Below, in pieces: positions 3,873 to 55,423 of a stretch of 64,000 nt of DNA. The stretch comes from Girardinichthys multiradiatus. Its lineage: Eukaryota; Chordata; Actinopteri; Cyprinodontiformes; Goodeidae. The translations under genes and the position numbers were made by a program. Each line of letters opens with the position of its first letter. Position 1 is the first letter of the stretch. The stretch covers positions 11,495,002 to 11,559,001 of the forward strand of contig NC_061800.1 in the NCBI RefSeq assembly GCF_021462225.1, in the 5' to 3' direction. The notes beneath the pieces were generated by a model. It was not told where the DNA came from, searched no databases, and was given only the letters and a program-made list of their open reading frames with translations.

Positions 3873-5432
3873 ATGCATTTTGGGCCAAAGATGGAGGGAA
3901 CATCCCATACTGCATCTGGAGATGTGTGCATGGTGGAGGACCCCATAGGAATGCAGGCACAAGAGGTGATTGGGTCATTGATTATGTTGTCCCCAGAGGA
4001 ACGTAAAGGTCTCAATGAGTATGGCACTGAGCAATGTGAAGCCAGGATTCAGGAGTTGCTCCAAGTCATTAAACACCCACCAAAGGACAGACGGGTCTCA
4101 GATGTGTTAGGACAGCTCACTCTGTTATATCAGCGAAGGTTAATGTTGGAAGTTGACCAGCGTGTTAAACTGCAGTTTGAGCTGAATGATACTTTGCAGA
4201 CGGTGGATGTCCTTAGAGGTGAAATAACACAAGTTGGAAATAGATTGGAAGCAATAGAGTGTAGCCATGCCACCCCTCCCCCCCTGGAAGAATGGAGGGA
4301 CGAACCGAAACCCACCTCACAGGTTGATACCTTTGGAGGTGAGCCACACCTGCGATACCCTGAGAGAACCTGCAGGTCAGATCTGGAGGATGTAGAAGCT
4401 GCTCTCCAGAGATTACCTTTCCAGGCTCATGGAGTTCCCCATACATCCACTGAGGCAAGAACAGGTGTTAGTAGTCAGAATAGGTTCAATGGTGCGGTGC
4501 CCCATCCCACTGCGATCAGCAGCCATGAACGGTACCTGGCTGGGGACCCAGTAGGTGTAAATAGTTCACGTCTCAGATGCGAGCAGCCTTCAAACTTGAC
4601 TCGCAGTACGGTCCTCTACAATCCCTCACCTCTGCCAAGGCAACAGGAAAGCCGCCCCTGGGATTCAGGTGGTTCCTACCGCCCTCAACCGCTGCCCAGG
4701 ACCCAAGTCCGGGAAGCACAGGGCCCACTGTTGTACCGGGAGCAGCCTCCACTGCCTCCTCTGAGGATGAGGCGTGATGCACTGATACACCCTGAGTGCA
4801 GCCGGAGTGAACTCTCCGATGATGACTCAGATGGGCCGTCACCAATCCCTGAGAGTGGATTGCGCACCCGCCAGCTTGAGTCCCTTGCCAAAGACAGAGC
4901 GTTTCGATCCTAATAATGCAGAATCAAACATTAGGGAAGTTGAACGCTGTCTTCTAGATTTGTATTGCCCATCAGCACGGGAAAAACTGAAGCTCATCTG
5001 GAAGACAACATCCAGGAGCGTCCATGTTTTCATGGAGAGCCTAACACCCGCAGTCCGAGACCGTTATTCAACCCTTTGTGAAGCTTTAAGGGAAGAATAT
5101 TCTGTGTACACGGACCGGGTCTCCGCCACACTTGCCACTTTCACTATCCAGCAAAAGAAAAGCGAAGCACCCAGGGAGTATTACCGGCGCTTGAGAGCCG
5201 TTTGCTTCCAAGGACGCAATGCGCCCGGCATTGAGGGGGAACATGCTTTTAAATCCCTGGTCCTCCACAACCTTCATGAAAGTGTGCGATACGATGTTAC
5301 TCTGTATTGCAGAACCAAGACCATGAGCATGCAAGAGATCCGCAAATATGCTCAGATGGCGTGGGAAACACGTGCTCGCCCGACCAAGGGACCAGAGGGC
5401 GAGGCTAGGGTTTTACGGATACATGCAGAAAG
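3873..5432 (+). pseudogene. gag: Gag of outer LTR retrotransposon (frameshifted, interrupted)
   Basis: A Gag-like protein begins at the ATG at 3873. The first part (to about 4890) has a helical/coiled stretch (residues about 60-130, rich in Leu, Glu, Gln) and a Pro/Arg-rich linker. Near 4880-4910 the frame changes: the first ORF ends at 4913 and a second open from 4807 carries the capsid-like helical domain (motifs CLLDLYCPSAREKLKL and REYYRRLRAVC), typical of Ty3/gypsy-type retrotransposon Gag. The reading frame is then cut at 5432 by the ERV1 LTR, with the target duplication AAAG at 5429-5432. The C-terminal part resumes at 16166. Clade is uncertain. Frameshift and insertion make it non-functional. 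Confidence 0.8.
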
Positions 5433-5963
5433 TGTGGAGATATATTATGTGTGTGCATCATTATTATTATGTTCATAACCTGTGTGGGAAATGAAATGTA
5501 TAACCTGTATTAGTATAAGACATTGTGGCCTGCAGAATTGTTATTGCACAAACTTGGCCTTGAGTGTGATGAAGCAGAAAATACTGAGAGCTGAAGGAGT
5601 GTGTGAAAAAGTAGAGACTGACTTACTCCCTGCTTATATCAGTAGATACGAGTGCAGGTGCTGGAACAATGACTGTCTAAATATGGTGAAGCCGGAAAAG
5701 TGTGTACGTGACTACATGTGAGAAAATATTGTAATCAAGGGCGCTGCCCATTTTCATGTGTGTTTTAATAAAAGTAATGTGCCCAGTGAGAAGCTCTGAA
5801 GTCGTCTCGGTGTGTGGTCAGATCACATGAGAGCTTCCCTGGTCCAGGTATTTTGAATTGCATACAGCTGTCTCTGTGTGATTTATTCTAATGTGTGTAA
5901 TTCCTCCAGGTTGCGGTGAATAAACGAACGCGCAGAAGGCCTCTTTAAAGAGGTTCTTCAAAA
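5433..5963 (+). repeat. 5' LTR of ERV1
   Basis: It begins TGTGGAGATATATT and aligns end to end with 15625-16161. A poly(A) signal AATAAA lies at 5767-5772, and GAATAAACG follows further down. The last bases read CAAAA here against CAACA in the 3' copy, so the terminal CA has mutated. A 76-codon ORF from the ATG at 5491 to 5721 is open in both LTRs. Confidence 0.93.
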
Positions 5964-5966
5964 ATT

Positions 5967-5984
5967 TGGTGACCCCCGACGTGG
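5967..5984 (+). other. ERV1 primer binding site, tRNA-Trp type
   Basis: TGGTGACCCCCGACGTGG is complementary to the 3' end of vertebrate tRNA-Trp (expected TGGTGACCCCGACGTGA) apart from one extra C and the last base. It starts 4 bp after the LTR. Confidence 0.8.
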
Positions 5985-7011
5985 ACAACAGAGAGTGACA
6001 GACGAGATCTTCTGACACCAGGCGCCCATTTACATCTTCTAAAAGGTCAGGTAGAGCCTATTTTATTAAAGTCTGCCGATTGAATTTATGTATAGGCTAA
6101 ATTAACCAGGTGTCAGTTCATTCTCAATGTCATTTTACTCTGCATAACTGTAAAAGAGTGTGCGTTAACTGGACGTGTTCAAATGGAGTCAGATAAGAAT
6201 TAAGCTTTTGAAGGTTAGAGGCCTCATTTCAAGCTAATAAAAGGTTGAAGTCCTTAATTGCTGGGCGTGGCGTCCTCACTTATTAATTGACAGATTAATA
6301 AGATATAGCTAGGTTCAAGGCCTGTGACGTGGCAACCCACAAAGAATATTTTTAACGGGAGTTAAAGGCCCCATGGAAGTCCATCTGTATATTTTTAAAA
6401 CAGGTGACTGATTTATTCAGAAATGTATGAAGGGTTAGAGTCCCTTCTAGTGGTCACACGGAGGAATTACACAAGCGACTGGGAGTGCAGTCGAATTTAA
6501 ATCTTTGATCACACATTCTGACTTAAAAATGCGGTTGGATTTTTTATTATTTGAGCAAAAATGAAATGCATTTATTGAATATAGGGTGAAGTGGCTTGTA
6601 GTGGATTGTTTTTGCATATTTGTGCATATTTCCTGCATGCGAGTGTCTGTCACTGACTGTTGTGTTGAATTGAGGAAATACGAGCTGGAATGTGTGTGTT
6701 TCCGACTGACGCTGGATGATTATTTGGGGTAAAATAAAAAGACAAAGTACTAGATATAACTATCTGTGGTGCGGATTATAGAAGAAATGTGAATGTTAAG
6801 TGTTTTTGCTGATATTAAACAAGACTGACTGTGTCAAGCGCTGACTGACTGATTGTATGTGTGTGTGGGTACAGCCAGCGGAGAGCAGCTTTACCATTGC
6901 AGATGAATAAATGCACTGTGTAGTTAACAAGGACAATACAGTGATAAGCGGATTTTATATGCATATTGTGAAGAGTTATTTGAACATTTATTTCACAGGA
7001 TTTTAAACAAC
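5985..7011 (+). other. ERV1 5' leader
   Basis: A noncoding stretch of about 1 kb between the primer site and the gag ATG. Packaging and major splice-donor signals are expected here, but I cannot point to one with confidence. Confidence 0.6.
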
Positions 7012-9203
7012 ATGGAAGGTAAATTTCCGGACACAACAGCATGGCTGGATTTAGAAACACAATTACATAACATACAAGCGCTGGTTCTCCACACCAGGGG
7101 TAAAGATGAAGCTGAGAAGATTAAAAATAACATAAAAAAAAAGGTAAGACAAACGCTGAAGGCAGATGGAATTACTTTGACGGACAAGTGGAATTTAGGT
7201 GATTGGTTTAGAAAGAAACTGAACACAGCGAAGAAAAACAAACAGGACGCACAAGGTAATTTGAATGACGCTTCTGTCTGGTCCAAAGGTAAGCACAACA
7301 CAAACATACATAAATATGAAAAAGACGAGCGATTTTGGGGAGATATTCTTTTGATTTACCAGGGCGGAATTCACACAATGCAGCTGAAAAAACCGGAAAA
7401 GGAGACAAGAAGGAGGGGTCAAAATCAGCTCAGGGGACGAGCCCAGAGGAACCGCCCCCATATACAGACCCCTCCCCATGCAGCTCCCTCACTGGAGCGC
7501 CCACACCACCCCCTGGTGGATTGTACCCCATATTGGAAGTAGAAAATGGAACACTAGTAGTGCATGGATTGGACATTACAAAAGAGGGGAATTAATCTGT
7601 CAGTGGAACTTCCGGATTATCTATGCCAGCATCTGATGGGTCATTTCAGGATGCAGAAAAAGCAGCCTTTCAAGACAGAGAGGTAAGAGAAAGAAAAGAA
7701 CAACATCAAAGAAGCCTGAGCAAAACAAATCCCTTTCGCTCACCCCCACAAGAATCATGTCTAATTTCAGAGGCTGGGGCACGGGGGCCAGGCTCTGGCT
7801 TACAAGGAGCAGGGACTGATCCGGAAGGTTCAGTGGCTTTAATGCTCAGTGGATCCTGGAGGCCAGATAGGGTTATGTGTCCTAATCCTTTTCTCACACC
7901 CACACCTTGTTACACCTCTACCCCAGCTGTAGAGGTGTAGGTAAGCAGGCACAGCATGCCACAGGAAAGTGGAGAACACAGAGCAGATCCGCAGCAAAAC
8001 CATCCTGAGGATGGATCCCCAATACGTAATCACACAGTTGGACAGTTAAGGGAACATTTACCCCGCAAAGCTGCAGCGAAACCAGAAGGTTTTAGTTATG
8101 CCCCAAAAACCAATTATCCCCTTTTACAGCAACAAGGCTCCGGAGCCCCCTGTAGGTATAAACCTTTCTCTCTGGGTGACATAACGGCTCTCTGTGACAA
8201 ACTGACCCCCATAACTGAAGGAGCAGCAGTGTGGCTCCAGACTTTAGAGACCCTGACGGCAGGCACCACGCTAGCATTGGGAGATTATAGAGCAGTGGCA
8301 GGACGGTGCATGCCACACCACACATGTAGAGAGATTGAGACTGTTGCTTTCACCTCAGGAGCCCCGGATTCTGACCTCTTCACCCAGCATGTCCACTGGC
8401 TAGGTGATGCATTGAGAAAAGCATACCCTGTAACCAGGGGACGCACCATTCCTAATTTTGAATGGGACCCTAAAATTAACCCCAGGGAATACCTGGACCA
8501 GTGCAAATCCATGTGGCAAACTCAGACAGTAACTAACCCAGCTAATGAGGGGGCACAGCGAGACTGGTTCAGAAATGCTGTCCTTAAGGGACTGCTCCAA
8601 CAGGTGAAGGCCAGTATGGACGACAATCCTGACATGGCTGGAGCGGACACTGGAACTTGGGATCGCCATCTGATTCACCACCTGTCCAAAATAAGAGAGG
8701 ACCATAAGAAAGATGAGGAGGAACTTAAGACCCTGCAGACCCAATTGCTAAAAATGCAGTTAGCCGAAGCAAAGCAGAAAGCAGGAGAAAAGAACACAAC
8801 AAAACTCCCAAAATAATGTATGAAGATGCGGTTTCTCAGAGCCCCCAGACTCCTCCCTTTCCTGGCCACCAGGACACGATTGCACCGAGGTCTGCAACCT
8901 CTGGTCCTTATCATGCCCAACCAGGCCGGTTCAAGGGCAGAGGCGGGCCGTGGATTCCGTGGAGGACTACCAAGGCGATGGGGGGTTGCTGACGCTTGCT
9001 ACTACTGTGAGGAGGAGGGTCATTGGAGCCGAGAATGTCCATACAACCTTGAGGCATGTGGCCGTGGGTATGGACCCAGAGGAGGCCCAGGGCGACGCCC
9101 GTATCGAGGACGGGGTGGTCCACCACGTGGAGGTCCACAGCAGCAAACTTCACTTCAGCTGCCAGCCTGGGATGAACCCATCTTTGGGCCAGACCACTAC
9201 TGA
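7012..9203 (+). pseudogene. gag: ERV1 gag (matrix, late domain, capsid, nucleocapsid; broken)
   Basis: The matrix-like N-terminus starts at the ATG at 7012 (Met-Glu-Gly, so no Gly2 myristoylation site) in one frame. After a frameshift between about 7335 and 7420 the rest follows in a second frame. That frame holds a PPPY late-domain motif (EEPPPYTDP, about 7445), the capsid (about 8040-8700) with motifs such as WDPKINPREYLDQC, a Lys/Glu-rich helical tail, and one CCHC zinc knuckle (CYYCEEEGHWSREC, about 8998) followed by Arg/Gly repeats. In-frame stops interrupt it at 7593, 7938 and 8814. The final stop is TGA at 9201-9203, and protease continues in the same frame. Confidence 0.88.
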
Positions 9204-10157
9204 GGGCCCCCACAGAACCCCCTGGACAGAGGGACTGAGGACCCCTTACTGTCCGTGACAGTGTATGGACAAACTCTTCCTTTTTTGGTGGACACTGGGG
9301 CCACATGCTCAACCATTCAACAAGCCCCTCCTACCACCCTCTCCACAAGGACTACCACTGTCATAGGGTTTTCTGGGGCTAAACAGGTCCTACCTTACAC
9401 CACACCCCTAAAAACCGAGATAGGGGGACAGACTTTGAACCACAGCTATTTGGTGTCAGCGGACACCCCTGTCAACTTATTGGGCAGAGACATGTTGATT
9501 AAAATGGGTGCCACCATTTTATGTGGACCTGATGGACTGTCTGTGCATCTGCCCAATGGAACTCAACTACCCTGTGGCAACAATTCCCACCTCTCTCACG
9601 GACAGTATCTCATACAACCCCTGGCTGACCCTATGGCTGACATATATTGGGTCCTCCTGCATCCAGAAACCACAGCGGGCGGAGGCATCCTCTCGTTCTT
9701 CCTTCAGTGGAAATCCTGGATCTCGACCCTGGCGCCCTACGTCTCTCCCCCTGACCTGCCACATGTCACCCTCTTCTATGACAGGAATAACTGTGAATGT
9801 TATCAGGAAAGCTTTGTTGAGGAGCTGGAGGGGACTTCCTGGGAGATCGCCACCGCAGACATTTATGTAGCCCCTGAAGGTGTTGTAGCCTCCGTGCAGC
9901 TGTCTACAGAACAGGACAACTGGTTTAAAATGTGGTCTGATGGTGTACCCCATGTTTCACTAGCGCTCCACCCTGCTCACGAAGCCCGCGAACTGGGAGG
10001 AGCGTTAAAACGCTCCCTAGCTCTCACCGACTGGCATTCTTCATCTACACCATATCTATCTTATTCCCCCTCATGTAATACCTACCGCATTACTAACATG
10101 TCCACAGACGTTGGCACCTTGGAACATGTGCAACTTCAAAGACATCATGGGAGATAA
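9204..10157 (+). pseudogene. pro: ERV1 protease plus a 2H-phosphoesterase-like domain
   Basis: It continues the gag frame after the UGA, suggesting readthrough. Retropepsin is recognised by the active site LVDTGAT (about 9288) and the NLLGRD motif (about 9477). The domain that follows is not part of a normal protease. It shows a strand (DIYWVLLHP, about 9639), a helix, a strand with HVTLFY (His at 9762-9764), a helix, a strand pair, a helix, and a strand with HVSLALHP (His at 9951-9953). The two H-x-[S/T] motifs are 63 residues apart. That layout fits the 2H phosphoesterase fold by inspection only. A TAA at 10155 precedes the reverse transcriptase, which stays in the same frame. ERV2 has a counterpart at 38675-39058. 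Confidence 0.8.
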
Positions 10158-12482
10158 AAAACAGATCATCCAATGGCTGCAGCTGTAGTTCAGAGCATGC
10201 CATCTTCAGTTTGGGCAGAGGGCGCCACGGACATGGGACTCATTCAGTGTTCTCCCATCACTTTCCAGCTTAACACTGACCGACCCATTTGGAAATCCCA
10301 GTACCCTCACAAACCAGCAGCCGAAACTGGAATTTCTGACACCATAGAAGGGCTGTGGAATGCTGGGGTGCTGGAACCAGCTGACGGCTCTTCTTGGAAC
10401 ACACCCATCTTACCAGTAGAAAAGAAGGGCACTGGGAAATGGAGAATGGCCCACGACTTGAGAGCAGTGAATGCAGCACTTTCCACTCCTACAGTTCCAG
10501 TGCCCAATCCTTATGTTGCTCTTACCAATCTAAACCCCGAACATGCATGGTTCACCTGCATTGATCTGGCCAACGCTTTCTTCTGCCTGCCTCTAGCTGA
10601 GGAGTGCAGAGGTATTTTTACATTCACATATAAGTCAAACAGGTACTGCTACACTCGTTTGCCACAGGGTTTTGCTCTGTCACCAGGAATATTTAATCAG
10701 GTCCTTAAGGAATCCCTCCAAGACTGTCCCCTCCCACCGAACACCACATGGATTCAATGTGTGGATGACATTCTTTTGGCGACACCAACTGTTTCTGAAT
10801 GCTTGGAGGCCACGGCTGCGGTGCTCTCACACCCAGCACATGCTGGGTACAAGGTCAGCAAAGCCAAACTACAAATTTGCCGAAAACAGGTGGATTTCTT
10901 AGGCAGGGTAATCTCTCAGCCCGGGACAGGAATGTCCCCTTCACATCAATCTGCTGTCCTTTCTCATCCAAAACCAGTGCGGGTGAAGGACATGCTTTCC
11001 TTCTTGGGACTCACCGGATACAGCAGGTCATTTATTCCAGGATACACTGACCTGACTGCCCCACTCCGTGACTTAGTGAAGAAACAGGGCATGCACCATT
11101 TGACAGCGCTTCTAGAATGGACAACAGAAGCAGAGGAAGCATTTATTGCTCTTAAAACCAGCCTTTCCCAAGCTGCTCACTTGGCACATCCAGACTACAC
11201 ATTGCCCTTTCACTTGGATGTTTCTGTAACAGCGCACACCACGAACGGAGTGCTGTTCCAGAAAAAAGGGGGAGTAAGAACAGTGCTAATGTATATTAGC
11301 GTGATGCTTGACAACATGGAACAAAGACACCATGAATGTACAAGACATGCAGCAGGGTTGGCAAAAATAATTCAAAAAACAGCCCATGTGGTGATGGGAC
11401 ATCCACTACACATTTTAACATCACATGGAGTAGTGGCATTTGTCAATTCCAAAACTTTCACACTCTCACCATTGAGACAACAGAGATTGAGTAAGGTGCT
11501 GGAGGCGCCAAATATCATCTACAGCCATGAAGGGATCAACATGGCAGACAGAATGACACAAGGAGAGCCCCATGTATGCGCAGAAAAAGTTGAGGTAAGT
11601 GAGAAAATCAGACCAGACCTACAAGGAGAACCACTGACAGAAGCAAGAAACCTGTACACACATGGCTGTTGATTTAGACATGACACAGAGGGTCTGAAAG
11701 CAGCCTATGCGGTGGTGGAAGACACAGGAACGAACTTTGTGACTCTTAAGGCAGAAGGGCTGACAGACACCCAATCAGCACAGAGAGCAGAGGTGCTAGC
11801 AGTAATAGCAGCCCTAGAACTAGGGGAAGGACAAAAAGTGAACATCTACACAGACTCAGCTTATGTCACGGGAGCAACGCATGTGGAACTGAAGCAGTGG
11901 ATGAGAACAGGGTTTAGAACAGCAGGACAAAAACCCATTAAACATGAGCAAGAAATGAGAAGATTAGCTGAGGCCCTACTACTTCCCCAAGAAGTAGCGG
12001 TCATAAAATGCAAAGGACATGATAACAACAGCTACACTAGGGTGGCTCAAGGAAATCAAGCTGCAGACCAAGCAGCCAAAACCAAAGCTGGATATCTGCC
12101 CATACACATCTTGATGAACTCTGAAGTTGAATGGACACCAGAACCTACTCTGGAAGAGGTGAGTAGACTGCAAAAGGGGGCCTCACCGGAAGAGAAATCA
12201 GTCTGGAAGGCAAGAGGGGGAAGAAAAGACCAGGATGAACTATGGAAAAGTCCAGACGGACGTCCCATCCTACCTCCAGGGTTGACCACAACAGCGCTGG
12301 AAGAAGCACATGGACCGGGACATGCAGGAACTGCACAAATGATGAAGAGTCTTGAGCACTGGTGGCATCCATACCTGAAACAGACGGTAGGTCATTGGAT
12401 AAGCTCGTGTAGCACCTGCCAACAATTCAATATGAGACCCACTCTGAAGCCTGCACCAGGTAAGTTCCCTGTGGACCGGTAG
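10158..12482 (+). pseudogene. pol: ERV1 reverse transcriptase, RNase H and integrase zinc-binding region
   Basis: Reverse transcriptase motifs are clear: the fingers (W.TPILPVEKK), LPQGFALSPG (about 10660) and the catalytic CVDDILLA at about 10759 (the usual YxDD with Cys in place of Tyr). The connection follows, then RNase H, with YTDSAY and NQAADQAAK. The first RNase H acidic residue is replaced by His in LYTHGC, and a TGA stop follows at once (11670-11672). The frame resumes at 11673 through RNase H into an integrase HHCC zinc finger (HGPGH and CSTC). A TAG at 12480 ends the ORF. All segments share the gag/pro frame, so the damage is substitutions rather than frameshifts up to here. Confidence 0.9.
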
Positions 12483-13084
12483 CAGGTAAGGAAATCATCA
12501 TAGACTACACAGACATGACTGAGAGAGTGAATGGGTTCAGATATCTTTTGGTGTGTGTGGATGCGTTCACCGGTTGGCCAGAGGCCTGGCCAGCAAAAAA
12601 GTAAGACAGCAAAACAGTGGTGAACTATCTGATTAATCACTACATCCCCAGGCACGGTTTTCCTGCGAAAATCAGGTCAGATAACGGCACACACTTCAAA
12701 AATGAAGAACTTAGAGAGGTTGAAAAGTTCCTGGGACTGAGACATTCCTTTGGAACAGTGTACCACCCCCAATTTCAAGGGAAGGTGGAAAGGATGAACC
12801 AGACAATCAAAACTAAATTGGCTAAAATCTGTGCACAGACCAAAATGAATTGGATCACAGCATTACCTTTAGCTTTGATGTCAGTAAGAAGCTCAGTGAG
12901 CCAGAGACATGGGTTGACGCCCCATGAACTGCAGACTGGAAGACCTTTTCCAGGCCCAAAAACCAGGTTACCTTTTTTGACTGAATGTGAACAATCTATG
13001 TCTCACCGTGATTACTATAGATCTCTCCACAGCTTGGTTGCAGCATTCTCAAAACAGGTGGCCGCCCAACCATCCGAGGTTTGA
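12483..13084 (+). pseudogene. pol: ERV1 integrase core (frameshifted)
   Basis: The catalytic triad can be read: the first Asp in DYTDM (about 12503), the second in RSDNGTHF (about 12677), and Glu in KVERMN, 35 residues after the second Asp, a D,D-35-E core. The frame differs from the upstream zinc-binding part, and a TAA at about 12602 interrupts it. It ends at 13084 (TGA). A C-terminal GPY-type region is not convincing here. Confidence 0.87.
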
Positions 13085-13249
13085 TCCACCACCTCAGACG
13101 CGGAGTGGATCCTTCTGAAAGGATGTGATTGAGCTTTCCTCTCTTTCACTGGTGGTCGTAGCTGCACTCCCACCGAAGAACTTAACTGAACACTCTGAAC
13201 TTTAAAAAAAAAAAAAAAGGTCTTTTGTGTTTCACCATATTGTTAATCC

Positions 13250-13265
13250 TTATCTTCCTTTGCAG
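13250..13265 (+). promoter_or_regulatory. Likely env splice acceptor of ERV1
   Basis: A pyrimidine-rich stretch ending CTTCCTTTGCAG lies 16 bp before the putative env ATG at 13281, the position expected for the subgenomic env message. Preceded by an A15 run at 13205. Confidence 0.5.
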
Positions 13266-13280
13266 GTACCTTTGAAAAGG

Positions 13281-15277
13281 ATGGGAGGTAAAAATCTAGG
13301 ACCCAGACCCTTTAAGGGTTGGGTCACGGGAGGTATAGGAGTTTTATCATTTTTCATTGTCACATTGATTCTAGGTTTGTATTGTGAACTGCCTTTCCAA
13401 ACATGTACCAGTCATCATCAAAATAAAATATCCAGGCGGAGCGTCTCCCCTAGCGTCTAAATTACACCCTAGGATCGACTACCACTTTCCAAATAGACCT
13501 CTGCAACGTCATACATTGTGGCGACGAGTTCACTCATTTCACAAAAGTAGACTTTTACTTATGCGCCAATGAACAAACCTCAGTTTATTGCACGGATAAC
13601 ACCACCAATAGGGTAACAAAGTCTGGTAATCCTCCTCTATGCGGAGGGACGTGGGGAGCGGTTATAACATGGAGCGGACGCACCTGGATCCCAACCAAAT
13701 CTTCCTTGAACATACAACAAAAAGCTCACTCTGAAAAATTCTTTCTGACCCGTGGAGTGCTCCCAGAGAAAGGCGAAGGCGTTAAGATCCCCTTATTACT
13801 GACCATAAAGGATCTACAACGGGGTTTGTTGGAAGAATCCCATCAATGGAACCAAGTAGTATATCTGGCTCTAGGTATTCACTTCAACACAGGATGGTAT
13901 ATGGGGTATGACCCTCAGGGACTGATTAAAGTTAATTTCAATAAAAACACCACCACTGACCACGGTAAAACCATTAAAATTGATTATTCCACCCTACAAC
14001 CTTTAGATATTATTCAGATGGCTACGGGATATTCAGATGATAACTTATGGCTTAAATGGATAGCTCAAACAGCTAAAGAACAATCCAAATCTGACTGTAT
14101 GGCCTGTGCATCAGCCAGACCGCATTTGACAACTGATCCTGGTCCTCTGTATCCAGAGGACCAGTGGGGTTATAGCTGTATGCTACAGCTGACTAGAGTG
14201 GCTACTTCCACAAACTGTACCACTTTGGCCAGTCTGTTCCCACCCATTGCCAATAACACCAGAGCAGGCCCTTTCACCCCTCAACGAAAAAATGGCACAT
14301 ACACTTGCCTTACCTTCACTTCCACAACACCAAAGGCAAATGTAGGACAAATTCCTCGCGATTGGTGTAACATCACGGTGCCAGGCTCAGTGATAGGTCC
14401 CTGGGCAAGATCAGGACTCTACTATTATTGTGGAGGACATCAGCTATTAACTAGGATTCAAAATAATACTATTGGAATTTGTGCCATGGTTAGGTTGCAG
14501 GCACCTCTCCTTCTGATAGGTAAAGACTTTAAGTATCTTCCCTCGAAACATGCACAAAGCACGGCTCTCACTAGGCGACGGCGTAGACATGTCATGAAGC
14601 GGAGCACAAACGCATTTGACCTGACCGTAGGCTCGCCCACCTACATTGACGCAATTGGAGTCCCCCGAGGCGTACCCAATGAGTATAAATTGGCGGACCA
14701 AGTATCAGCAGGCTTTGAAAACCTTCCCATTATTGGAGCCTTTTTTGCGGTAACTCCCAATAAAAATGTGGACCGCATTAATTACATACATTACAATGTT
14801 CTTCGAATGGCCAACCTCACTAGAGATGCTGTGGAGGGACTAGCTGAACAAACTGGCCCCACATCCCTTATGGCAGTACAAAATAGGATGGCCCTGGACA
14901 TGGTGTTAGCTGAAAATGGCGACATGTGATGTACTTTCATACCCAATAATACCACCCCTGATGGTTCTGTCTCAAAAGCTTTAGAAGGGTTAAAAACACT
15001 TTCAGCCACTATGCATGAGCACTCAGGAATAGACAATCCGTTCGAAGACTGGATGACGGGCATGTTTGGACACTGGAAAGGGTTGATTATGTCATTGTTT
15101 ATTTCCATTGCTGTTTTTGTAGCTATTATGGTTACCTGTGGATGTTGTTGTGTACCATGTATAAGATCTTTGATTGTTCGCTTTATTACTACAACCATTG
15201 AAGGGAAAACCGCACCTCCTCCTTCCCATATAATGCCTTTGCTTGCGGTGAATGCTAACGAGGAGGGCGAAGATTAA
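13281..15277 (+). pseudogene. env: ERV1 envelope glycoprotein (broken)
   Basis: The leader from the ATG at 13281 contains a hydrophobic stretch (GIGVLSFFIVTLILGLYC), and its frame is lost by 13460. The main ORF (13706-14929) holds the surface subunit with a CxxC motif (DCMACASA), many N-x-[S/T] sites and a run of five Arg (about 14574) as the furin-type cleavage site. The transmembrane subunit follows. The conserved LQNR-like segment (QNRMALDMVLAENG) is present, but the cysteine region is damaged: residues appear deleted and a TGA (14927-14929) stands where a CC pair would be expected. The same frame reopens to 15277 with a membrane anchor (LFISIAVFVAIMVTCGCCC) and a short tail. Compared with ERV2, which keeps CX6CC, this copy is damaged. 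Confidence 0.87.
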
Positions 15278-15611
15278 CCCGTAAGAGTAAGTTACAGGGC
15301 GTCTGATATGTATTACTGTCTAGGGAGCAGAAGGATGGTAGAATATTATATTGGCATATTTGGACAGGCTATGGAATAAAGCACAGATAGACACCCTCCT
15401 GCCAATACTCCCTGTCAAGACTTAGAAGGTTGTAAGCATCCTTGGGACTACAAAGGCCGGACAGGAAATAGTCCCTGGGCACATGGCATGGCATTGGAGG
15501 CAGGGTCAAAAAGCATGATGACAAACATTTCCTTCTGCTCCACAGGTTGTAATGACTGTTCAAATCTTTAATGCTGTATCTTCAATTAGTGGTGAAGAGT
15601 TGGGAGACTAC

Positions 15612-15624
15612 AAAAGGGGGAAAT
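15612..15624 (+). other. ERV1 polypurine tract
   Basis: AAAAGGGGGAAAT immediately precedes the 3' LTR and would prime plus-strand synthesis. Confidence 0.85.
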
Positions 15625-16161
15625 TGTGGAGATATATTATGTGTGTGCATCATCATTATTATTATGTTCATAACCAGTGTGGGAAATGAAATGTATAACC
15701 TGTGTTAGTATAAGACATTGTGGCCTGCAGAATTGTTATTGCACAAACTTGAGTACCTTGAGTGTGATGAAGCAGAAAATACTGAGAGCTGAAGGAGTGT
15801 GTGAAAAAGTAGAGACTGACTTACTCCCTGCTTATATCAGTAGATACGAGTGCAGGTGCTGGAACAATGACTGTCTAAATATGGTAAAGCCGGAAAAGTT
15901 TATACGTGACTACATGTGAGAAAATATTGTAATCAAGGGCGCTGCCCATTTTCATGTGTGTTTTAATAAAAGTAATGTGCCCAGTGAGAAGCTCTGAAGT
16001 CGTCTCGGTGTGTGGTCAGATCACATGAGAGCTTCCCTGGTCCAGGTATTTTGAATTGCATACAGCTGTCTCCGTGTGATTTATTCTAATGTGTGTAATT
16101 CCTCCAGGTTATGGTGAATAAACGAACGCGCAGAAGGCCTCTTTAAAGAGGTTCTTCAACA
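15625..16161 (+). repeat. 3' LTR of ERV1
   Basis: 537 bp, from TGTGGAGATATATT to CAACA, followed by the target duplication AAAG. Compared with the 5' copy it has two extra codon-sized insertions (CAT/ATC near 15654 and a GAGTACC variant near 15751) and about ten substitutions. The ORF present in the 5' LTR is also open here (15686-15919). Confidence 0.93.
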
Positions 16162-16165
16162 AAAG

Positions 16166-16970: not shown

Positions 16971-18012
16971 ACCAGGGAAAGGAGAGACCTGTGCGTAGGA
17001 CTAGTTAAATAGGTGCATATCTCATGAACTCACACTAACATGCACTAATCACTAACAACTTTCTTCAACAGAAACAGTTAAACATATAACTACCTTCTAG
17101 GACACAGTCTTAAACTGTAAGTTGGCACGATAATTTTCCATAACACTGCATGCACAGCAGACCTCACAAAAGTGATTAAGAATGATGTAATGGACACCCA
17201 CATTGCCAGAGATTTCATGCAAAATCTTATTAAAGAGGTTGGTTAATCTGTAGACAGTCCCACCGAGGCACAGATACCCACTGGCCTAGTTCTGCTGAAT
17301 TTAGAGAAAATCCTAAATCCACCACAACAGACACCTTGCAACCTCCACAAACACACCTGGCTTATAGCCTAGGTACTGCAATTCATTTATTCTTTTTCAC
17401 CCTCTTTTCACATCTAGATAGTTTAGAGACAGGAGTCATATTAAAACCCATCATCATTTGGAAGAGCTAATGGTTTAACCCTAAATCTGTTTTAAACGTT
17501 AGTTTTTTTTTTTAGATTATACACTGCAAACCGGCAGGTTAAGCGTTTACAGGCCAGGATTGATTCCCTCACATTCATTCCCCCACGATTCATAGCACCG
17601 CCTTTGCCAATGACACAGCCAGGTTCCAGTGCCTAATAGAAGTTGGATGAATAAGCTATGAACCATGATTTTGTTTTCTTTTTTATATATATACATATAT
17701 ATTTACGGTATCTTTTATTGCTGTTTCATTTTGTCTCAGGGTTACCAAACCTGATGACCAAGGAATGTAATGATGATATGAATGTATTGTCCTGTATTTT
17801 CTCATTGAACAACATAGAAAGGTATGAGTTAGTCAGACTTCAGTCCTGCCCAGGCTAACCTCTATCCTGCCCAGTCATAGGTTTTGAGGAAAACAGAGAC
17901 AGTTTTGTTTGTTCTGCTTCGCCACGGATCACTGATTGGTCAGCAAAGGACAGAATGGTCCCAGTAGCTTCAAAGACTGCGAATCATCTCACCCTTTGAA
18001 CCTAGGGGGGAA
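16971..18012 (+). other. 3' noncoding region and polypurine tract of outer retrotransposon
   Basis: About 1 kb with no recognisable pol or env remnants in any frame. It ends in the polypurine tract AGGGGGGAA (18004-18012) next to the 3' LTR. Confidence 0.7.
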
Positions 18013-18562
18013 TGTTGGACCACTTGTTTGCTGAATATTGGACGATTTGCATGTTGTTGGACATCACTATGCCTTTCCAATGGCATCGGCCATTTTGTAT
18101 CCAGGACAGTCTGCTCCTACATATCCCGTCCAACATTGCGACTGATATGACGGGGCGCCCCAAGTCTGACGTCACAGGACACTATATATGAAGACACCCA
18201 GTTTGAACATACGCCTTCAGCTGGAGACCGGGTCCGGTTACCAACATCTGAAGCATCACCTGGAGAAAAGTCCCGAGTGGATCTCATTTATTCTCTCTCG
18301 TTGGCCAACGAACAATTCATCACTGAGGTTTCTGGACTAAGAAGGCCAGAAATTTCACTTTGCCGATCGAAGACGTGAGTTTAACACGTAACTAAAAACA
18401 CGGAGTTTCGAGGAGACGAACCGCCACCGTGTTTTATCCTAGTCGACTTTGATGGTCAGATCATATTTTTCCCTTTCGCTAAGGAGGCCAGAGGACGAAG
18501 ATTGACCGCTTTTCCTTAAGTTAACTGTGGACGCACAGTAACTTCCACACCATTCTCTCTCA
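18013..18562 (+). repeat. 3' LTR of outer retrotransposon
   Basis: It aligns with 2133-2684 over its full length, starting TGTTGGACC right after the polypurine tract and ending CTCTCTCA. About 3% of positions differ. Confidence 0.87.
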
Positions 18563-29300: not shown

Positions 29301-29358
29301 AAATAACTTGCTATTTCATTTATTCATTTCTGTTTTTATAATTATCTTGCTTACTGAA

Positions 29359-30273
29359 ATGAATGCAACATACATCACTTTTGATGGCCATGTAGAGGTT
29401 GAAAAATACAGATATGTTTACTTTATTTTAATGTTTACAAGTTATATTTTGATCCTGTTCAGCAATACTACAGTTGTTAGTATGATTGTGATTCACAAGA
29501 ATCTCCATGAGCCTATGTATATTTTTATTGCTGCTTTGTTAATGAACTCCATGCTTTTCAGCACTGCGATCTACCCAAAGCTTTTGATAGACTTTTTATC
29601 TGAAAAACAGATTATAACTTATAATGTGTGTCTCCTCCAGAGTTTTCTATATTATTCTTTAAGTGGTTCTGAATTCTTGCTTTTGGCAGCCATGTCTTAT
29701 GACAGATATGTGTCCATATGTAAACCTCTGCAATATCCAACTATTATGAGAAAAACTAAAGTGAGTATTTTCCTTGTCTTAGCTTGGCTTGTACCTGCTT
29801 GTCATGTTGTTATACTGATCATTATATTTGTTCATTTAAAACTCTGTAGCTTCACTTTGAAAGGCATTTTCTGCAACAATTCTCTGAATTATCTTCTCTG
29901 TGTGGCTTCAAGAGCAATAATGATATTTGGCTTAGTGGGCCTTTTCAATATTAGTATTCTTCCAATGCTTTTCGTACTATTCACTTACACAATGATACTT
30001 AGAATAGCCTATAGAAGTTGTGGGGAAGTCAGGAAAAAAGCTGCACAGACATGTGTACCTCACCTGCTGGTTTTAATCAACTATTCTTGTTTGTTTACTT
30101 ATGAAATGATTATTGTTAGACTGGAATCTGATATTTCAAAGATTGTACGCTTTGCAATAAAACTGCAAATAATAATCTATAATCCTCTTTTCAATCCAAT
30201 CATATATGGACTGAAAATGAAAGAAATTTCTAAACACCTAAGACAGTTGTTCTATCATGCTAGAGGAAAGTAA
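29359..30273 (+). CDS. Olfactory (odorant) receptor, intact single-exon GPCR
   Basis: It encodes a seven-transmembrane odorant receptor of 304 residues in one exon, as is normal for the family. I chose the ATG at 29359 (MNATYIT, giving an N-terminal N-glycosylation site); an upstream in-frame TTG at 29308 only extends the open frame. Family motifs are present: LHEPMYIFI after TM1, MSYDRYVSICKPLQYP at the end of TM3, KAAQTCVPHL at the start of TM6, and NPIIYGLKMKEI in TM7. TM2 has MNSMLF and extracellular loop 2 keeps its cysteines. There are no stops or frameshifts. It would act at the ciliary membrane of olfactory neurons through a G protein; the ligand cannot be inferred. A related fragment lies at 33700-33860. 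Confidence 0.93.
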   Translation: MNATYITFDGHVEVEKYRYVYFILMFTSYILILFSNTTVVSMIVIHKNLHEPMYIFIAALLMNSMLFSTAIYPKLLIDFLSEKQIITYNVCLLQSFLYYSLSGSEFLLLAAMSYDRYVSICKPLQYPTIMRKTKVSIFLVLAWLVPACHVVILIIIFVHLKLCSFTLKGIFCNNSLNYLLCVASRAIMIFGLVGLFNISILPMLFVLFTYTMILRIAYRSCGEVRKKAAQTCVPHLLVLINYSCLFTYEMIIVRLESDISKIVRFAIKLQIIIYNPLFNPIIYGLKMKEISKHLRQLFYHARGK

Positions 30274-36649: not shown

Positions 36650-38213
36650 ATGGGAAAAAAACTGAAAAATAATTTGGAGCGAGATGTAAAATTTATGGAG
36701 AATTATGTGGAAGGAGCAGGCATGATCTGCCGTAGGTGGAATAAAAAACATGGGTTTTTGGGCAAATTAGATACAAAGGATGTCTTAAAATTACAAGGGG
36801 ATCTAAAATTAGAAATAATAAAAACTAAAAAGAGACAAAAGGAAGGTTGAATATAAACTCTCAGAAAAATGGTTGGAACAGAGCAAGTTGAGAGACATAC
36901 AGAGACAGGATAAGAGGGAGAAGCGAAAAGAAAAGTTAACAGCCGCAGTTATGGTGCGGCAAGAGGAGGAGACTACAGCTGCCTTCAGACAGCAAAGGCG
37001 GCAGCCTCCAGGAGAGCAGCCGCCTGCTACACAGGCAGTGGTACAGCGTGAGGAGGAGGAAGAAGGCGCAGCAGCACCTCCTCAAACCCCCGAGAAAAAG
37101 CCAGATAAATCAAACAACCCTTTTAAAACAGAAGAACAGAGCTCCTGGTCTCCTAATTTCTGGGGGAGCACAGGCGTACAAACTAGGAGTAAAAAAATGA
37201 AAACCACTACTGACCCCGGCTTATACCCAAATGAAGCCTTAAAGGCTCACGAACAGAAATTTCATCCATCTGGAAAAAATATAGAGGAAGACACATTTCC
37301 TCTTGTTGAAGTGGCCAATCCAAACATAGGTAACGCTAATAATCCACAGCCGCCAACCATTCTAGTATATAGGCCATGGACGCAGGAAGACAGAACTGCC
37401 GCTTTAAAAGGTATTCCAAACATACAGGAAGGTGTACAGGAGTTTTTAGCAGCTATCACAGAACTCAGAGGAAGTTTCCATCTTAATGGCAGAGAAATGC
37501 ACCAGTGTCTTTCTCGGCTCTTCGGCCATCGCTGGTGTAGAGTAGCCGGAGATTTCACTGGAAATGATGCCCAGGGAAATTCAATGGCGCACAATTCAGC
37601 GGATTTAAGAGATGCCTTACGCATCCTTCACGACAGAATCAGAACAGAATACACACAGACAGCAGATTACGGCAAAATCTCACAATGTAAACAGAAGGAT
37701 GAGGAAGACCCACAAGATTTTTTGGATAGAATGAGACGTGTTTTCATAGCAAACTCTGCTTTACCATACAATGAGGTAGAATGCGGGGCATATCAACAGC
37801 AGCTGAAGAGAGCGTTTTTGCAAGGATTAAAACCTGAGCTCAGACGGTACATAGATAAACATTGGGTACACCAGAATACAGGCACTGTCAACCAGGCGTT
37901 GGAATATGCAGAACATGCACACAAAACGCAACAACACAGGAAAACAGACACATTCACAATGCAAGATGGTTTAATAACATTGCAACAAGTGTCAGCACAC
38001 TCATCAAGGGGGAGGGGAAGATTTAGAGGCGGGGGGAGCAGAGGAGGAGGAGAATTCAGAAACACACAAAGCATTGTGTGTCGGAGGTGTGGCAAAACAG
38101 GGCATTACGCAAGAGGATGCAAAACAAACTGTTGGCTTTGCAACAAGCAAGGACATTTTGCAAGAGATTGTCAGGAGAAACTGGTATACAACCCCAACTC
38201 CAACCAAAATTGA
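36650..38213 (+). pseudogene. gag: ERV2 gag (matrix, capsid, two zinc knuckles)
   Basis: The ATG at 36650 gives MGKKLKN, a plausible N-myristoylation signal followed by a basic matrix. A TGA at 36848 with a frame change separates it from the main ORF (36873-38213, whose first codon is a TTG, so it is a continuation and not a start). That ORF has an acidic/Gln-Pro-rich linker, a capsid with the segment EEDPQDFLDRMRRVF (about 37705), an Arg/Gly-rich stretch and two CCHC knuckles, CRRCGKTGHYARGC (about 38080) and CWLCNKQGHFARDC (about 38131). It ends in TGA at 38211, with protease continuing in the same frame. Confidence 0.88.
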
Positions 38214-39058
38214 CAATTACAGCCTCAGCCCCCTGCAGGGGAAGAAGATAACTCTGATATGGAGGAAGTTGACATACAAGCAGCCTTAGAACTGATAGCG
38301 TTAAGCAAATCACAAGATTTACCCTATAAGAACATAATAATAAATGAAAAAGTGTACAACTGCTTTTGTGACACGGGGGCATGTAGGACAGTATTAAACT
38401 GAACCCCCACCTGGAGTAAAATATTCTAACACTGCAGTACATGTTAGATCTGCAGCCGGTACATCAGAGATCCATTATCTAAGCACACCGGTGATCATAA
38501 AAGAGCCTGAAACAGGATCCACATGCCAGGCTCCCGTTCTAATTAGTCAGAAATGTCCAGTAAATCTGCTAGGGAGAGACATTATGCAGAAGTTACACAT
38601 AAACATCGTGTCTACAGAAACAGGCATGAAAGCTATTGTTGAGGAGGGAGCTGCACACGGGTCCTCACAACCACACTATTACTGGTCTCTAGATCTAGGA
38701 CCCACCCCAACAGCTCGAGAGCTGCTAAGAAAAACAAACTTTTCAACAAACTCAGTACATGCCAGACACTGAACTCCATGTGACTATGAGATACAAAAAC
38801 ACTCCAGGGCCAGATTATCAATATGACACTGTTTTTCATAGAGAGAATAATCAAACCGTTACCATACAGCATCTGTATGTTGACCCCAAAACAGGGAAAT
38901 CCTCTGCCTCAGTCCTACTGTCGGAAAAACAACTACAACTGTTTAAAGACCACACCCCTCATCTATCACTGACTAAACCTGTAGGGGGTCAATGGAAGAA
39001 TTCAGAACATTTTCTACAAAGAGCTGAGAGAGGGAGATATGAGGCATCAACAAACTGA
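38214..39058 (+). pseudogene. pro: ERV2 protease and 2H-phosphoesterase-like domain (frameshifted)
   Basis: Protease follows gag in the same frame past the UGA, with the active site CDTGA (about 38367), then a stop at 38400. In another frame come the protease C-terminus with NLLGRD (about 38563), and next a strand HYYWSLDLG (about 38677) and helix. The frame changes again near 38757 to HVTMRY (His 38777-38779) and, 61 residues later, HLSLTKP (His 38960-38962). Between them are a helix/strand region with TVTIQHLYV and ASVLLS. The order matches the ERV1 domain at 9630-10000 although the residues have diverged widely. Confidence 0.78.
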
Positions 39059-39079
39059 CTGGAAAATAGATCATAATAC

Positions 39080-40218
39080 AGGGATCTGGAAACTCACTCT
39101 AGGGTGGGTGATCAAAGTACATCCAAAAACGCATATGGATGAAGCTGACTGAAAGCTACAGTGTCTGGCTGAAGAAAAACGAAATCTAAAACACTCTGCC
39201 TTGAAAGCTGTCCCACCTGAACTGTGGTCCCAATCATCAACTGATGTAGGGCTAATAAAGGGGTTCCCACCATACAAGGTTAAACTAATATCTGAAAAAA
39301 GGCCATTAGTCCATCAATATCCCTTAAAGCCAGAAGCTGAGGAAGGTATTGAGCCAGTAATACAGGACATGTTAAAATCAGGAATATTAAGAGAAGCCCC
39401 TGAAGCTACATGTAACACACCTATTTTTCCAGTGCAGAAAGCCAGCACAGGAAAGTGGAGAATGGTCCAAGATCTCTGACAAATAAATGATATTGTACAG
39501 CATGCAGCTCCAGATGTTTCAAATCCACACACATTGCTGCATTCACTGACCCCAGATAAAAAGTATTTCTCAGTAGTAGATCTTAGCAATGCTTTCTTCA
39601 CAGTACCACTGCATGAAGAATCACAGCATTTGTTTGGTTTTCAGTTTAAAGGAAAGAAATACACCTATACTAGGCTTCCACAAGGTTTCAGTGAAAGCCC
39701 ACATGTATATACACAAGCATTAAGGTACTCAATGAGCACCTGCATAATACCAGAACAGTCAAGTTCTGCTATATGTGGATGACATTTTAGTAGCATCAGA
39801 CACAGAAAAACACTGTGAAGAGGCCACAATTACTGTGTTAAAGCACCTACACCAAACAGGCCACAAGGCTTCAAGAGACAAGCTGCAGTTTTGTAAAAAT
39901 GAAGTGGTTTAGAACGGACGCTCTCTACTGGATAGTAGAAAAACAGCCATACAGGAAGCCCCAAAACCAATAACAAAGCAGCAAATGATGTCCTTTTTAG
40001 GACTTTGTAATTTCTGCAGAGAGTGGCTTCCCGACTATGCAGCCATAGTGCAACCATTACAATCTATGATTTATGGAACAAACATGACATTAAGGGACAA
40101 AATTATTTGGACAGAAGAGGGGGAAAAAGCATTTATTAACTTAAAGAACTTACTGCAAACCACAGTTACATTAGCCTTACCAGACTACAGCCAACCATTC
40201 ACGCTGTGCGTGGACTCA
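39080..40218 (+). pseudogene. pol: ERV2 reverse transcriptase (broken)
   Basis: Motifs in order: TPIFPVQKASTGKWRMVQDL (stop at 39477), VVDLSNAFFTVPL (about 39576), LPQGFSESP (about 39675), and after a frameshift near 39760 the catalytic LYVDDILVAS (about 39769). The thumb/connection follows with FLGLCNFCREWLPDY and LALPDYSQPFTL. A TAG at about 39910 is one more break. The frame runs into the LINE at 40219 and resumes after it at about 43591. Confidence 0.88.
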
Positions 40219-43200: not shown

Positions 43201-43590
43201 TTCCCCAACAGCAGTTGTAGTTCCTCCATTTTGTTGGGAAGTGAGCGCACGTTAGAGAGAAATATTCCAGGTAACGGTGTTCGTAGTCCACGCTGGCGAA
43301 GTCGTACCAGCACCCCAGCCCGTTTCCCTCTCTTCCGGCGTTTCACCGCGTGAACAAAGGTGAGCGCACCTTTGACCAGAATGTCCAAAAATTCCAGAGC
43401 AGTAGGCAGAAAAGTGGGAAATAACTCCTCTGGTGTAGTAGCCCTGATGTTCATGAGTTCTTCTCTGGTGAGAGAGCTCCGGGTACCATCACAGAAGACC
43501 GTTTTAAAGCAAAAAACAAAACAAAACAATGCGCACCAACACGCCGAGGCGACCATCTGCGGCGCCATCTTGTTCTTCCACAGAGGGCTA
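40219..43590 (-). mobile_element. LINE (L2/CR1-like group) with an uninterrupted ORF, inserted in ERV2
   Basis: The 3' end (left) carries a short tandem tail (TCAGAA repeated) and the TTTATTGCCAAGTACG signature; the 5' end is near 43590. The insertion is in reverse orientation relative to ERV2 pol. I could not define a target duplication. A dead relative is at 31986-32940. Confidence 0.85.
40548..43568 (-). CDS. LINE endonuclease/reverse transcriptase, intact ORF
   Basis: One open frame of 1006 residues from the ATG at 43568 ([11 protein letters not shown]); the 14 further codons upstream come from ERV2 flank and lack support. It begins with a hydrophobic stretch and a basic region ([10 protein letters not shown]). 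The apurinic-type endonuclease follows: [21 protein letters not shown], and SDHI. The reverse transcriptase has [27 protein letters not shown] and the catalytic FADDTTLIG. The C-terminal SSITIWYAA and basic [20 protein letters not shown] complete it. Length is normal for an ORF2-type protein and there is no stop, so it could be active. It nicks target DNA and primes cDNA from the break. Subclade assignment (L2 against related groups) is uncertain. Confidence 0.88.
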
Positions 43591-53848: not shown

Positions 53849-55423
53849 CACTGCTCAAAAAATAAAGGGAACACTTAAACACAATATAACTCCAAGTAAA
53901 TCAAACTTCTGTTAAATCAAACTGTCCACTTAGGAAGAAACACTGATTGACGATCAATTTCACATTCTGTTGTGCAAATGGAAAAGACAACAGGGGGAAA
54001 TCTTTGGCGATTAGCAAGACACTCAATAAAGGAGTGGTTCTGCAGGTGGGGACCACAGACCACTTCTCAGTACCTATGCTTTCTGGATGATGTTTTGGTC
54101 ACTTTTGAATGTTGGTGGTGCTTTCACACTCATGGTAGCATGAGACGGACTCTACAACCCACACAAGTGGCTCAGGTAGTGCAGTTCATCCAGGATGGCA
54201 CATCAATGCTAGCTGTGGCAAGAAGGTTTGCTGTGTCTGTCAGTGTAGTGTCCAGAGCCTGGAGGAGCTACTAGGAGACAGGCCAGTACACCAGGAGACG
54301 TGGAGGAGGCCGTAGGAGGGCAACAATCCAGCAGCAGGACCGCTACCTCCACCTTTGTGCAAGGAGGAACAGGAGGAGCACTGCCAGAGCCCTGAAAAAT
54401 GACCTCCAGCAGGCCACAAATGTGCATGTGTCTGCACAAACGGTTAGAAACTGACTCCATGAGGATGGTATGAGGGCCCGACGTCCACAAATGGGGGTTG
54501 TGCTCACAGCTAAACACCGTGCAAGACGCTTGGCATTTGCCAGAGAACACCAGGATTGGCAAATTTGCCACTGTTGCCCTGTGCTCTTCACAGATGAAAG
54601 CAGGTCCACACTGAGCACATGTGACAGACGTGACAGAGTCTGGAGACACCGTGGAGAGCAATCTGCTGCCTGCAACATCCTTCAGCATGACTGGTTTGGC
54701 AGTGGGTCAGTAATGGCGTGGGGTGGCATTTCTTTGGAGGGCTGCATGGCCCTCCATGTGCTCGCCAGAGGTAGCCTGACTGTCATTAGGTGCCGAGATG
54801 AGATCCTCAGACTCCTTGTGAGACCATATGCTGGTGCGGTTGGCCCTGGGTTCCTCCTAATGCAGGACAATGCTAGACCTCATGTGGCTGGAGTGTGTCA
54901 GCAGTTCCTGCAAGATGAAGACATTGAAGCTATGGACTGGCCCGCCCGTTCCCCAGACCTGAATCCGATTGAGCACATCTGGGACATCATGTCTTGCTCC
55001 ATCCACCAACGTCATGTTACACCACAGACTGTCCAGGAGTTGGCGGATGCTTTAGTCCAGGTCTGGGAGGAGATCCCTCAAGAGACCATCCGCCGTCTCA
55101 TCAGGAGCATGTCCAGGCGTTGTAGGGAGGTCATAGAGACACGTGGAGGCCACACACAATACTGAGCCTCATTTTGACTTGTTTTAAGGACATTACATCA
55201 AAGTTGGATCAGCCTGTAGTGTGTTTTTCCACTTTAATTTTGTGTGTGACTCCAAATCCAGGCCTCCATTGGTTAATAAATCTGATTTCCATTGATGATT
55301 TTTGTGTGATTTTGTTGTCAACACATTCAACTTTGTACAGAACAAAGTATTCAATGAGAATATTTCATTCATTCAGATCTAGGATGTGTTATTTGAGTGT
55401 TTCCTTTATTTTTTTGAGCAGTG
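53849..55423 (+). mobile_element. Tc1/mariner-type transposon with TA target duplication
   Basis: The termini CACTGCTCAAAAAATAAAGG and ...TTTTTTGAGCAGTG are inverted repeats, each flanked by TA (53847-53848, 55424-55425). Length 1575 bp, right for a complete Tc1-like element. The transposase inside is broken. Confidence 0.93.
54140..55165 (+). pseudogene. Tc1-type DD34E transposase with two nonsense codons
   Basis: Frame from the ATG at 54140 ([20 protein letters not shown]) to the TGA at 55163, 341 codons. The N-terminal half is the paired helix-turn-helix DNA-binding domain. The catalytic triad is FTDES (about 54580), MQDNARPH (about 54862) and DLNPIEHIWD (about 54958), a DD34E spacing. 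Stops interrupt it at 54272-54274 (TAG) and 54452-54454 (TGA), with no frameshift. It would cut out the surrounding element; this copy cannot code for a full enzyme, but the intact ends could be mobilised in trans. Confidence 0.92.

What the first reader, a model, noticed from the sequence alone, without database searches (positions are those of the whole stretch)
9630..10000. 2H-phosphoesterase-like domain between protease and reverse transcriptase in ERV1
Seen: after retropepsin, Pol has a segment of about 120 residues ordered strand (YWVLLHPE), helix, strand with HVTLFY, helix, strands, helix, strand with HVSLALHP; the two H-x-[S/T] motifs are 63 residues apart. Known: 2H phosphoesterases (LigT, AKAP7, coronavirus NS2, rotavirus VP3 C-terminus) have two H-h-[S/T]-h motifs in this topology, and the viral members cleave 2',5'-oligoadenylates. 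Inference: this retroviral lineage carries such a domain inside Pol, possibly acting on RNA ends, cyclic phosphates or 2-5A. I know of no report. This is the most interesting signal in the window.
Basis: partly seen in the sequence, partly recalled or inferred. Interest (0 to 1): 0.9.

Follow-up and report, generated by a model that had tools for sequence, protein, structure and literature searches.

The report
CNPase-like enzyme domain in retroviral Pol
Two different endogenous retroviruses in this window carry, between protease and reverse transcriptase, a domain resembling the host enzyme CNPase, whose catalytic residues are largely conserved in relatives from fishes; related domains in fish retroviruses are already in print, so this is a firm but not wholly new case of a retrovirus carrying an enzyme for RNA ends or nucleotide signals.

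The parts
5428..5964 (+). 5' LTR of ERV A (extent of the repeat)
   Evidence: 97% identical to 15620-16163 (blastn; core repeats)
8817..9203 (+). end of gag ORF with CCHC zinc knuckle, ERV A
   Evidence: zf-CCHC E 2.9e-07
9240..9518 (+). retropepsin domain, ERV A
   Evidence: RVP E 1.5e-12, aa 13-105 of ORF 9204-10157
9633..10139 (+). CNPase-like 2H phosphoesterase domain, ERV A
9762..9773 (+). first catalytic motif HVTL (aligned with CNPase H230-x-T232)
9951..9962 (+). second catalytic motif HVSL (aligned with CNPase H309-x-T311)
10158..11672 (+). reverse transcriptase ORF, ERV A (an in-frame stop at 10155-10157 separates it from the 2H ORF in this copy)
   Evidence: RVT_1 E 6.6e-27; stops listed
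11673..12482 (+). RNase H and integrase zinc-binding domain, ERV A
   Evidence: RNase_H E 2.2e-22, Integrase_H2C2 E 1.2e-09
12605..13084 (+). integrase core piece, ERV A
   Evidence: rve E 1.7e-06, 28.7 bits, below the curated cut-off of 32.6
13454..14929 (+). Env-like ORF, ERV A, by eye only: polybasic stretch and a sequence I read as gamma-type Env
   Evidence: translation; no Pfam hit
15620..16163 (+). 3' LTR of ERV A (extent of the repeat)
36822..38213 (+). gag ORF with two zinc knuckles, ERV B
   Evidence: zf-CCHC E 2.2e-08
38428..38607 (+). C-terminal part of retropepsin, ERV B
   Evidence: RVP E 2.7e-05
38729..39058 (+). second CNPase-like 2H domain (partial; its frame differs from that of the PR ORF), ERV B, between PR and RT
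   Evidence: profile E 3.8e-08 among 1229 window ORFs; BLASTP 4e-06 to mouse CNPase, single comparison
38777..38788 (+). first motif HVTM, ERV B
38960..38971 (+). second motif HLSL, ERV B
39153..40215 (+). reverse transcriptase pieces, ERV B (broken into several ORFs)
   Evidence: tblastn with the ERV A RT, 39% identity; RVT_1 E 1.1e-11 on 39480-39779

Best explanation
It is a CNPase-type 2H phosphoesterase that forms part of Pol (order PR - 2H - RT - RNase H - IN) in a clade of class I (epsilon-like, by my reading) fish retroviruses. SHOWN by computation: the predicted fold, the placement, the alignment of both catalytic dyads with CNPase, their conservation, and divergence in step with RT. 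INFERRED: it is made as part of Gag-Pol, packaged at Pol stoichiometry, freed by PR or left attached to RT, and acts without metal, one His as base and one as acid, opening 2',3'-cyclic phosphates to 2'-phosphates or cutting other 2'-linked phosphodiesters. The most likely role is to process nucleotide ends or signals in or near the reverse-transcribing particle: removing 2',3'-cyclic phosphates left by host metal-independent RNases on genome, primer tRNA or sensor-activating RNA. The confidence below is for a CNPase-type 2H enzyme in Pol, active in intact relatives. Rough odds of the steps: 2H fold 0.97; active phosphodiesterase in intact relatives 0.8; 2',3'-cyclic-phosphate RNA ends as main substrate 0.45.
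Against: No activity was measured. The window protein scores no Pfam family for this segment; the 2H-family scores shown for relatives lie below the gathering score (13.6 and 15.9 bits against 27, 16.4 against 25). In pairwise phmmer to mouse CNPase only 16 of 59 domain pieces beat every shuffle, and ERV A (6.7) did not (best shuffle 7.2). P0054 alone gave no CNPase match by BLASTP and CNPase only at E 0.58 among 18 mixed PDB hits. With alignment A2 hhalign was weaker (probability 36) and missed the second motif. One lineage (P0034, P0052, P0054, P0055, P0056, P0063) lacks the first Thr, a change that nearly inactivates CNPase. CNPase Arg307 has no counterpart in ERV A (Val), though R307Q keeps kcat. 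The C-terminal strands are less conserved (median 40% over 20). Both copies in the window are broken. Packaging and processing are inferred only.
Confidence: 0.8

Rival explanations
1. Antagonist of cGAS-STING: the domain, brought in with RT, destroys 2'3'-cGAMP made in response to viral cDNA, as avipoxvirus LigT-like enzymes do and phage Acb1 can.
For: A retrovirus makes DNA in the cytosol (general knowledge); LigT-like enzymes of avian poxviruses cleave cGAMP (PMC11410667, passages); delivery inside the particle would be well timed (inference).
Confidence: 0.2
2. 2-5A phosphodiesterase that blocks RNase L, like coronavirus NS2 and rotavirus VP3 (one of the first reader's suggestions).
For: Same superfamily; several RNA viruses have 2H enzymes for this (PMC8406329 and PMC11410667, passages).
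Confidence: 0.1
3. A non-enzymatic role: an RNA- or Gag-binding mimic of host CNP, an interferon-induced protein reported to bind HIV-1 Gag and block assembly; the viral copy could shield Gag or be a spacer before RT.
For: CNP binding to Gag is cited in PMC3832489 (passages). One lineage lacks the first Thr but keeps the domain.
Against: The two His are the most and the joint second most conserved columns, which a mere scaffold would not need.
Confidence: 0.15

Closest known systems
Vertebrate CNPase (CNP) and goldfish RICH, catalytic domain
   Different: About 14% identity overall; retropepsin, not a PNK-like domain, stands upstream; no Arg307 counterpart in ERV A; part of a retroviral polyprotein.
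CNPase reported in fish ERVs by Basta et al. 2009 (seen only as cited in Naville & Volff 2016, PMC4977317, passages)
   Same: Same enzyme family, ray-finned fish, epsilon-like ERVs.
   Different: The review speaks of additional open reading frames; the original is not held, so whether it is the same PR-RT domain is open. I think it likely.
2H domain of walleye dermal sarcoma virus (PMC9503650, passages, citing Mazumder 2002, not held)
   Same: 2H domain in a fish retrovirus; structure matches A4GTG3 (WDSV) E 2.2e-08 and Q9WHI8 (WEHV-1) E 6.2e-10.
   Different: Those entries are labelled Envelope polyprotein, so there the domain appears to sit in Env, not Pol; the matched range in the target is not given.
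Coronavirus NS2 / AKAP7 / rotavirus VP3 2',5'-phosphodiesterases
   Different: Much weaker match than CNPase; different place in the genome.
Phage Acb1 and avipox LigT-like cGAMP phosphodiesterases
   Different: Much weaker match than CNPase; not part of a Pol polyprotein.

Membership tests
2H phosphoesterase superfamily | two H-x-[S/T] motifs | tested here: met
   the window protein has HVT and HVS; all four residues in 39 of 48 rows covering them
2H phosphoesterase superfamily | 2H fold (by prediction) | tested here: met
   pLDDT 91.5 model; CNPase, drCPDase, LigT, ns2, Acb1 and Usb1 among the 50 VIA entries shown
2H phosphoesterase superfamily | metal-independent phosphodiesterase activity | not testable with these tools
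   needs purified protein
CNPase (PF05881) | Pfam gathering score | tested here: not met
   window segment: no family; best A4 member E 8.7e-04, bits not shown; P0054 16.4 bits against 25. So it is filed as CNPase-like within 2H, not as a Pfam CNPase member
CNPase (PF05881) | CNPase-type whole-domain fold with C-terminal strands | tested here: met
CNPase (PF05881) | equivalents of catalytic H230/T232 and H309/T311 | tested here: met
   hhalign register; Ser for Thr at the last place, which 2H enzymes allow (passage)
CNPase (PF05881) | base-stacking aromatic (Phe235) | tested here: inconclusive
   Phe-Tyr follows the motif but the alignment needs a one-residue gap
CNPase (PF05881) | N-terminal PNK-like P-loop domain of vertebrate CNPase | tested here: not met
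   retropepsin stands upstream in the same ORF
viral 2',5'-PE (NS2/VP3/AKAP7) | closest structural relatives are 2',5'-PEs | tested here: inconclusive
Acb1 / avipox LigT cGAMP PDE | cleaves cGAMP | not testable with these tools

The most novel reading that the evidence does not exclude
A CNPase-type 2H enzyme is a standing member of Pol in a broad, old clade of class I retroviruses that infected teleosts, sharks and rays. It was acquired before the ERV A and ERV B lineages split, mostly kept active since, and delivered with RT to process RNA ends or nucleotide signals during reverse transcription. Walleye-type epsilonretroviruses carry the same function in Env instead.
Probability: 0.45. Interest if true: 0.8.

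Novelty: new member of a known kind. Interest (0 to 1): 0.6.

Why it matters
Viral 2H enzymes have been shown in other viruses to destroy immune second messengers. A conserved one placed next to RT would imply that these retroviruses bring their own enzyme for RNA ends or nucleotide signals into the cell, and makes a simple question testable: what does a CNPase-like domain in Pol cut? A possible second placement in walleye virus Env suggests that the function was wanted twice or moved.

Tried and rejected
Pfam and PDB searches with the single ERV A segment found nothing; only profiles, structure and the ERV B piece did. LigT, NS2 or AKAP7 as nearest family was set aside: profile A4 listed none of them among 26 PDB hits and the VIA scores of LigT and ns2 are about half (AKAP7 is not among the entries shown, which excludes nothing). 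Chance motif pair: rejected by the relatives and the second element. Separate captures in ERV A and ERV B: made less likely by co-divergence, but only 17 of 71 rows had enough of both segments; no shark or ray row was in it, and much of the correlation may come from a few deep groups. Scans of viral contigs with P0001 and P0009 gave no loci, so there was no DNA of relatives and no dN/dS. The Env match could not be tested by sequence. A second structure (the lineage without the first Thr) was never run because the queue stayed full. The host of the window is inferred only: P0065 from Goodea atripinnis is 90-92% identical over about a quarter of the query. Relatives labelled Brevinema and Salmonella I take for fish DNA in those assemblies.

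Full report
What is there. The provirus (ERV A) has LTRs at 5428-5964 and 15620-16163, 97% alike (core repeats), a gag zinc knuckle upstream, and RT, RNase H, integrase and an Env-like ORF downstream. This copy carries several in-frame stops, one of them between the 2H segment and RT; the one at 9201, between gag and protease, could be a natural read-through stop (general knowledge).

Relatives. A search with the PR-2H ORF gave 32 proteins; a domain profile (A3) gave 37, of which 33 were new, including a shark (Chiloscyllium) and a ray (Narcine) protein; a wider profile (A4) gave 20, of which 4 were new. In all 69 distinct relatives were held. Only part of them carry names; those named are fishes (among them killifishes, goodeids, a livebearer, surfperches, mullet, amberjack, a characin, electric fishes, pufferfish, plaice, shark, ray), except two bacterial labels, Brevinema and Salmonella. 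Some partial relatives run from protease through 2H into RT as one predicted protein.

Conservation. On a profile alignment of 71 rows (69 relatives, ERV A, ERV B), the first His is H in 63 of 63 rows that cover it and the second in 55 of 56. The residue two after the first His is Thr in 55 of 63 (six Ile, one Met, one Arg); two after the second it is Ser or Thr in 55 of 55. All four are intact in 39 of 48 rows covering all four. Of the nine exceptions six are one lineage (P0034, P0052, P0054, P0055, P0056, P0063); the others are P0032, P0040 and P0027, the last with Tyr for the second His. The profile was built from 16 of these sequences, and rows are related, so they are not independent. An earlier count with another profile misaligned three rows and gave His1 in 55 of 58 and His2 in 50 of 51. 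The first His has the lowest entropy of 151 scored columns; the second His ties for second. The 2H core is about as conserved as the protease (median identity to ERV A 54% over 27 relatives, 50% over 23), the C-terminal strands less (40% over 20).

Sequence link to CNPase. Profile A3 listed 23 PDB hits, all CNPase/RICH, but at E 0.14 or worse. Profile A4 listed 26: 22 CNPase (best E 0.0012), one RICH, and three others (a designed protein at 0.043, an ssDNA-binding protein at 0.94, a glycosidase at 1.3). hhalign of A4 against mouse CNPase: probability 90.3, E 1.5e-06 for the single comparison, 90 columns, both motifs in register; 200 shuffles of CNPase scored at most 21.6 against 45.7, the reversed sequence 13.6. 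With A2, which holds protease and RT columns, the match was weaker (probability 36) and missed the second motif. Pairwise phmmer against mouse CNPase: of 59 domain pieces 58 were scored, best 18.0, median 3.6; 16 beat the best of 1180 shuffles (7.2; 778 scored), ERV B (9.8) among them but not ERV A (6.7). So most single relatives are not recognisable alone. P0054 alone gave no CNPase match by BLASTP and, in the PDB, CNPase at E 0.58 among 18 mixed hits. Pfam, with a lax limit: of 17 A3 members 8 touch 2_5_RNA_ligase2 (best 0.0044), one CNPase (0.0046), one LigT_PEase, and three unrelated families turn up once each; of 16 A4 members 6 touch 2_5_RNA_ligase2, 2 CNPase (best 8.7e-04), one LigT_PEase, and two other families turn up once each. 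Where bit scores of 2H families were shown they lay below the gathering score.

A second element. A six-frame profile search of the window (1229 ORFs of 30 or more residues) found one further significant place, 38729-39055, E 3.8e-08; the next rows were at E 0.53 with that profile and 0.13 with the other. It lies between the protease and RT of another retrovirus (ERV B) whose RT is about 39% identical to that of ERV A. It reads HVTM and HLSL, 61 residues apart. The piece alone matches mouse CNPase by BLASTP at 4e-06 for a single comparison, over the first motif and the middle strands, not the second motif; its only two PDB hits with E up to 10 are CNPases, E 0.021 and 1. The copy is broken: the protease ORF is in another frame.

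Descent. For 17 elements with both segments long enough (15 relatives, ERV A, ERV B), distances in 2H and in the start of RT correlate at 0.917 over 135 pairs; none of 2000 permutations reached this, highest 0.68. The simplest reading is that the domain is old in this clade and inherited with Pol.

Mechanism. In CNPase, changing either catalytic His or Thr removes or nearly removes activity (PMC4643303, passages). CNPase hydrolyses 2',3'-cyclic nucleotides to 2'-nucleotides (start of that abstract) and is thought to derive from tRNA-healing enzymes (PMC5434554, passages). By analogy the retroviral domain most likely acts on cyclic-phosphate ends. RNAs with such ends can trigger sensors (PMC8406329, passage), so removing them could serve replication or evasion. 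cGAMP cleavage is known for avipox LigT-like enzymes (PMC11410667, passages) and remains a fair rival. None of this was tested here.

What is known already. Naville and Volff 2016 write that fish epsilon-like ERVs occasionally include additional ORFs encoding for example CNPase or macro domain proteins, citing Basta 2009 (passages). A 2022 survey lists 2H domains in certain retroviruses, naming walleye dermal sarcoma virus and citing Mazumder 2002 (passages). The originals, and the SSSV paper, are not held. In the listings (of which 31, 41 and 79 showed only the best 20, 15 and 20 of 80, 6,271 and 828 papers), and in the passages I opened, I saw no statement that places such a domain between PR and RT; that is not proof that none exists. 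The WDSV review gives two predicted membrane helices of Env at 850-874 and 1045-1069 with a cytoplasmic loop between (PMC3185748, passages); at 170 residues that loop is about the size of this domain, so I suggest, untested, that the WDSV domain sits there.

Verdict. Real, well conserved, CNPase-like, part of Pol, and broader than the one element seen. The kind was known; the Pol placement, the reach to shark and ray, the conservation counts and the co-divergence with RT are what this work adds, subject to the unread originals.

Noticed in passing
36822-45592: A second retrovirus (ERV B) with gag, PR, a 2H domain, RT, RNase H and integrase pieces; broken; self-blast at E 1e-20 showed no LTR pair over 150 bases there; interrupted by a 1024-aa ORF on the minus strand (40548-43622) that I read by eye as LINE-like, not searched.
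   Followed up: partly
BFVD A4GTG3 and Q9WHI8: The structure search finds this fold in entries labelled Envelope polyprotein of walleye dermal sarcoma and epidermal hyperplasia viruses; the reported cytoplasmic loop of WDSV Env has about the right size.
   Followed up: partly
P0034, P0052, P0054, P0055, P0056, P0063: A lineage from metagenome and archive contigs keeps both His but has Ile or Arg in place of the first Thr: lost or altered activity.
   Followed up: partly
5428-16163: ERV A has LTRs 97% alike yet several in-frame stops through gag and pol, as if a defective copy had been spread by help from others (inference).
   Followed up: no
2132-2662 and 18012-18547: A 96% identical direct repeat pair flanks the provirus on both sides.
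   Followed up: no
29302-30273 and 54455-55165: An olfactory receptor ORF (7tm_4 E 3.6e-37) and a Tc-type transposase ORF (DDE_3 E 3.9e-13).
   Followed up: no
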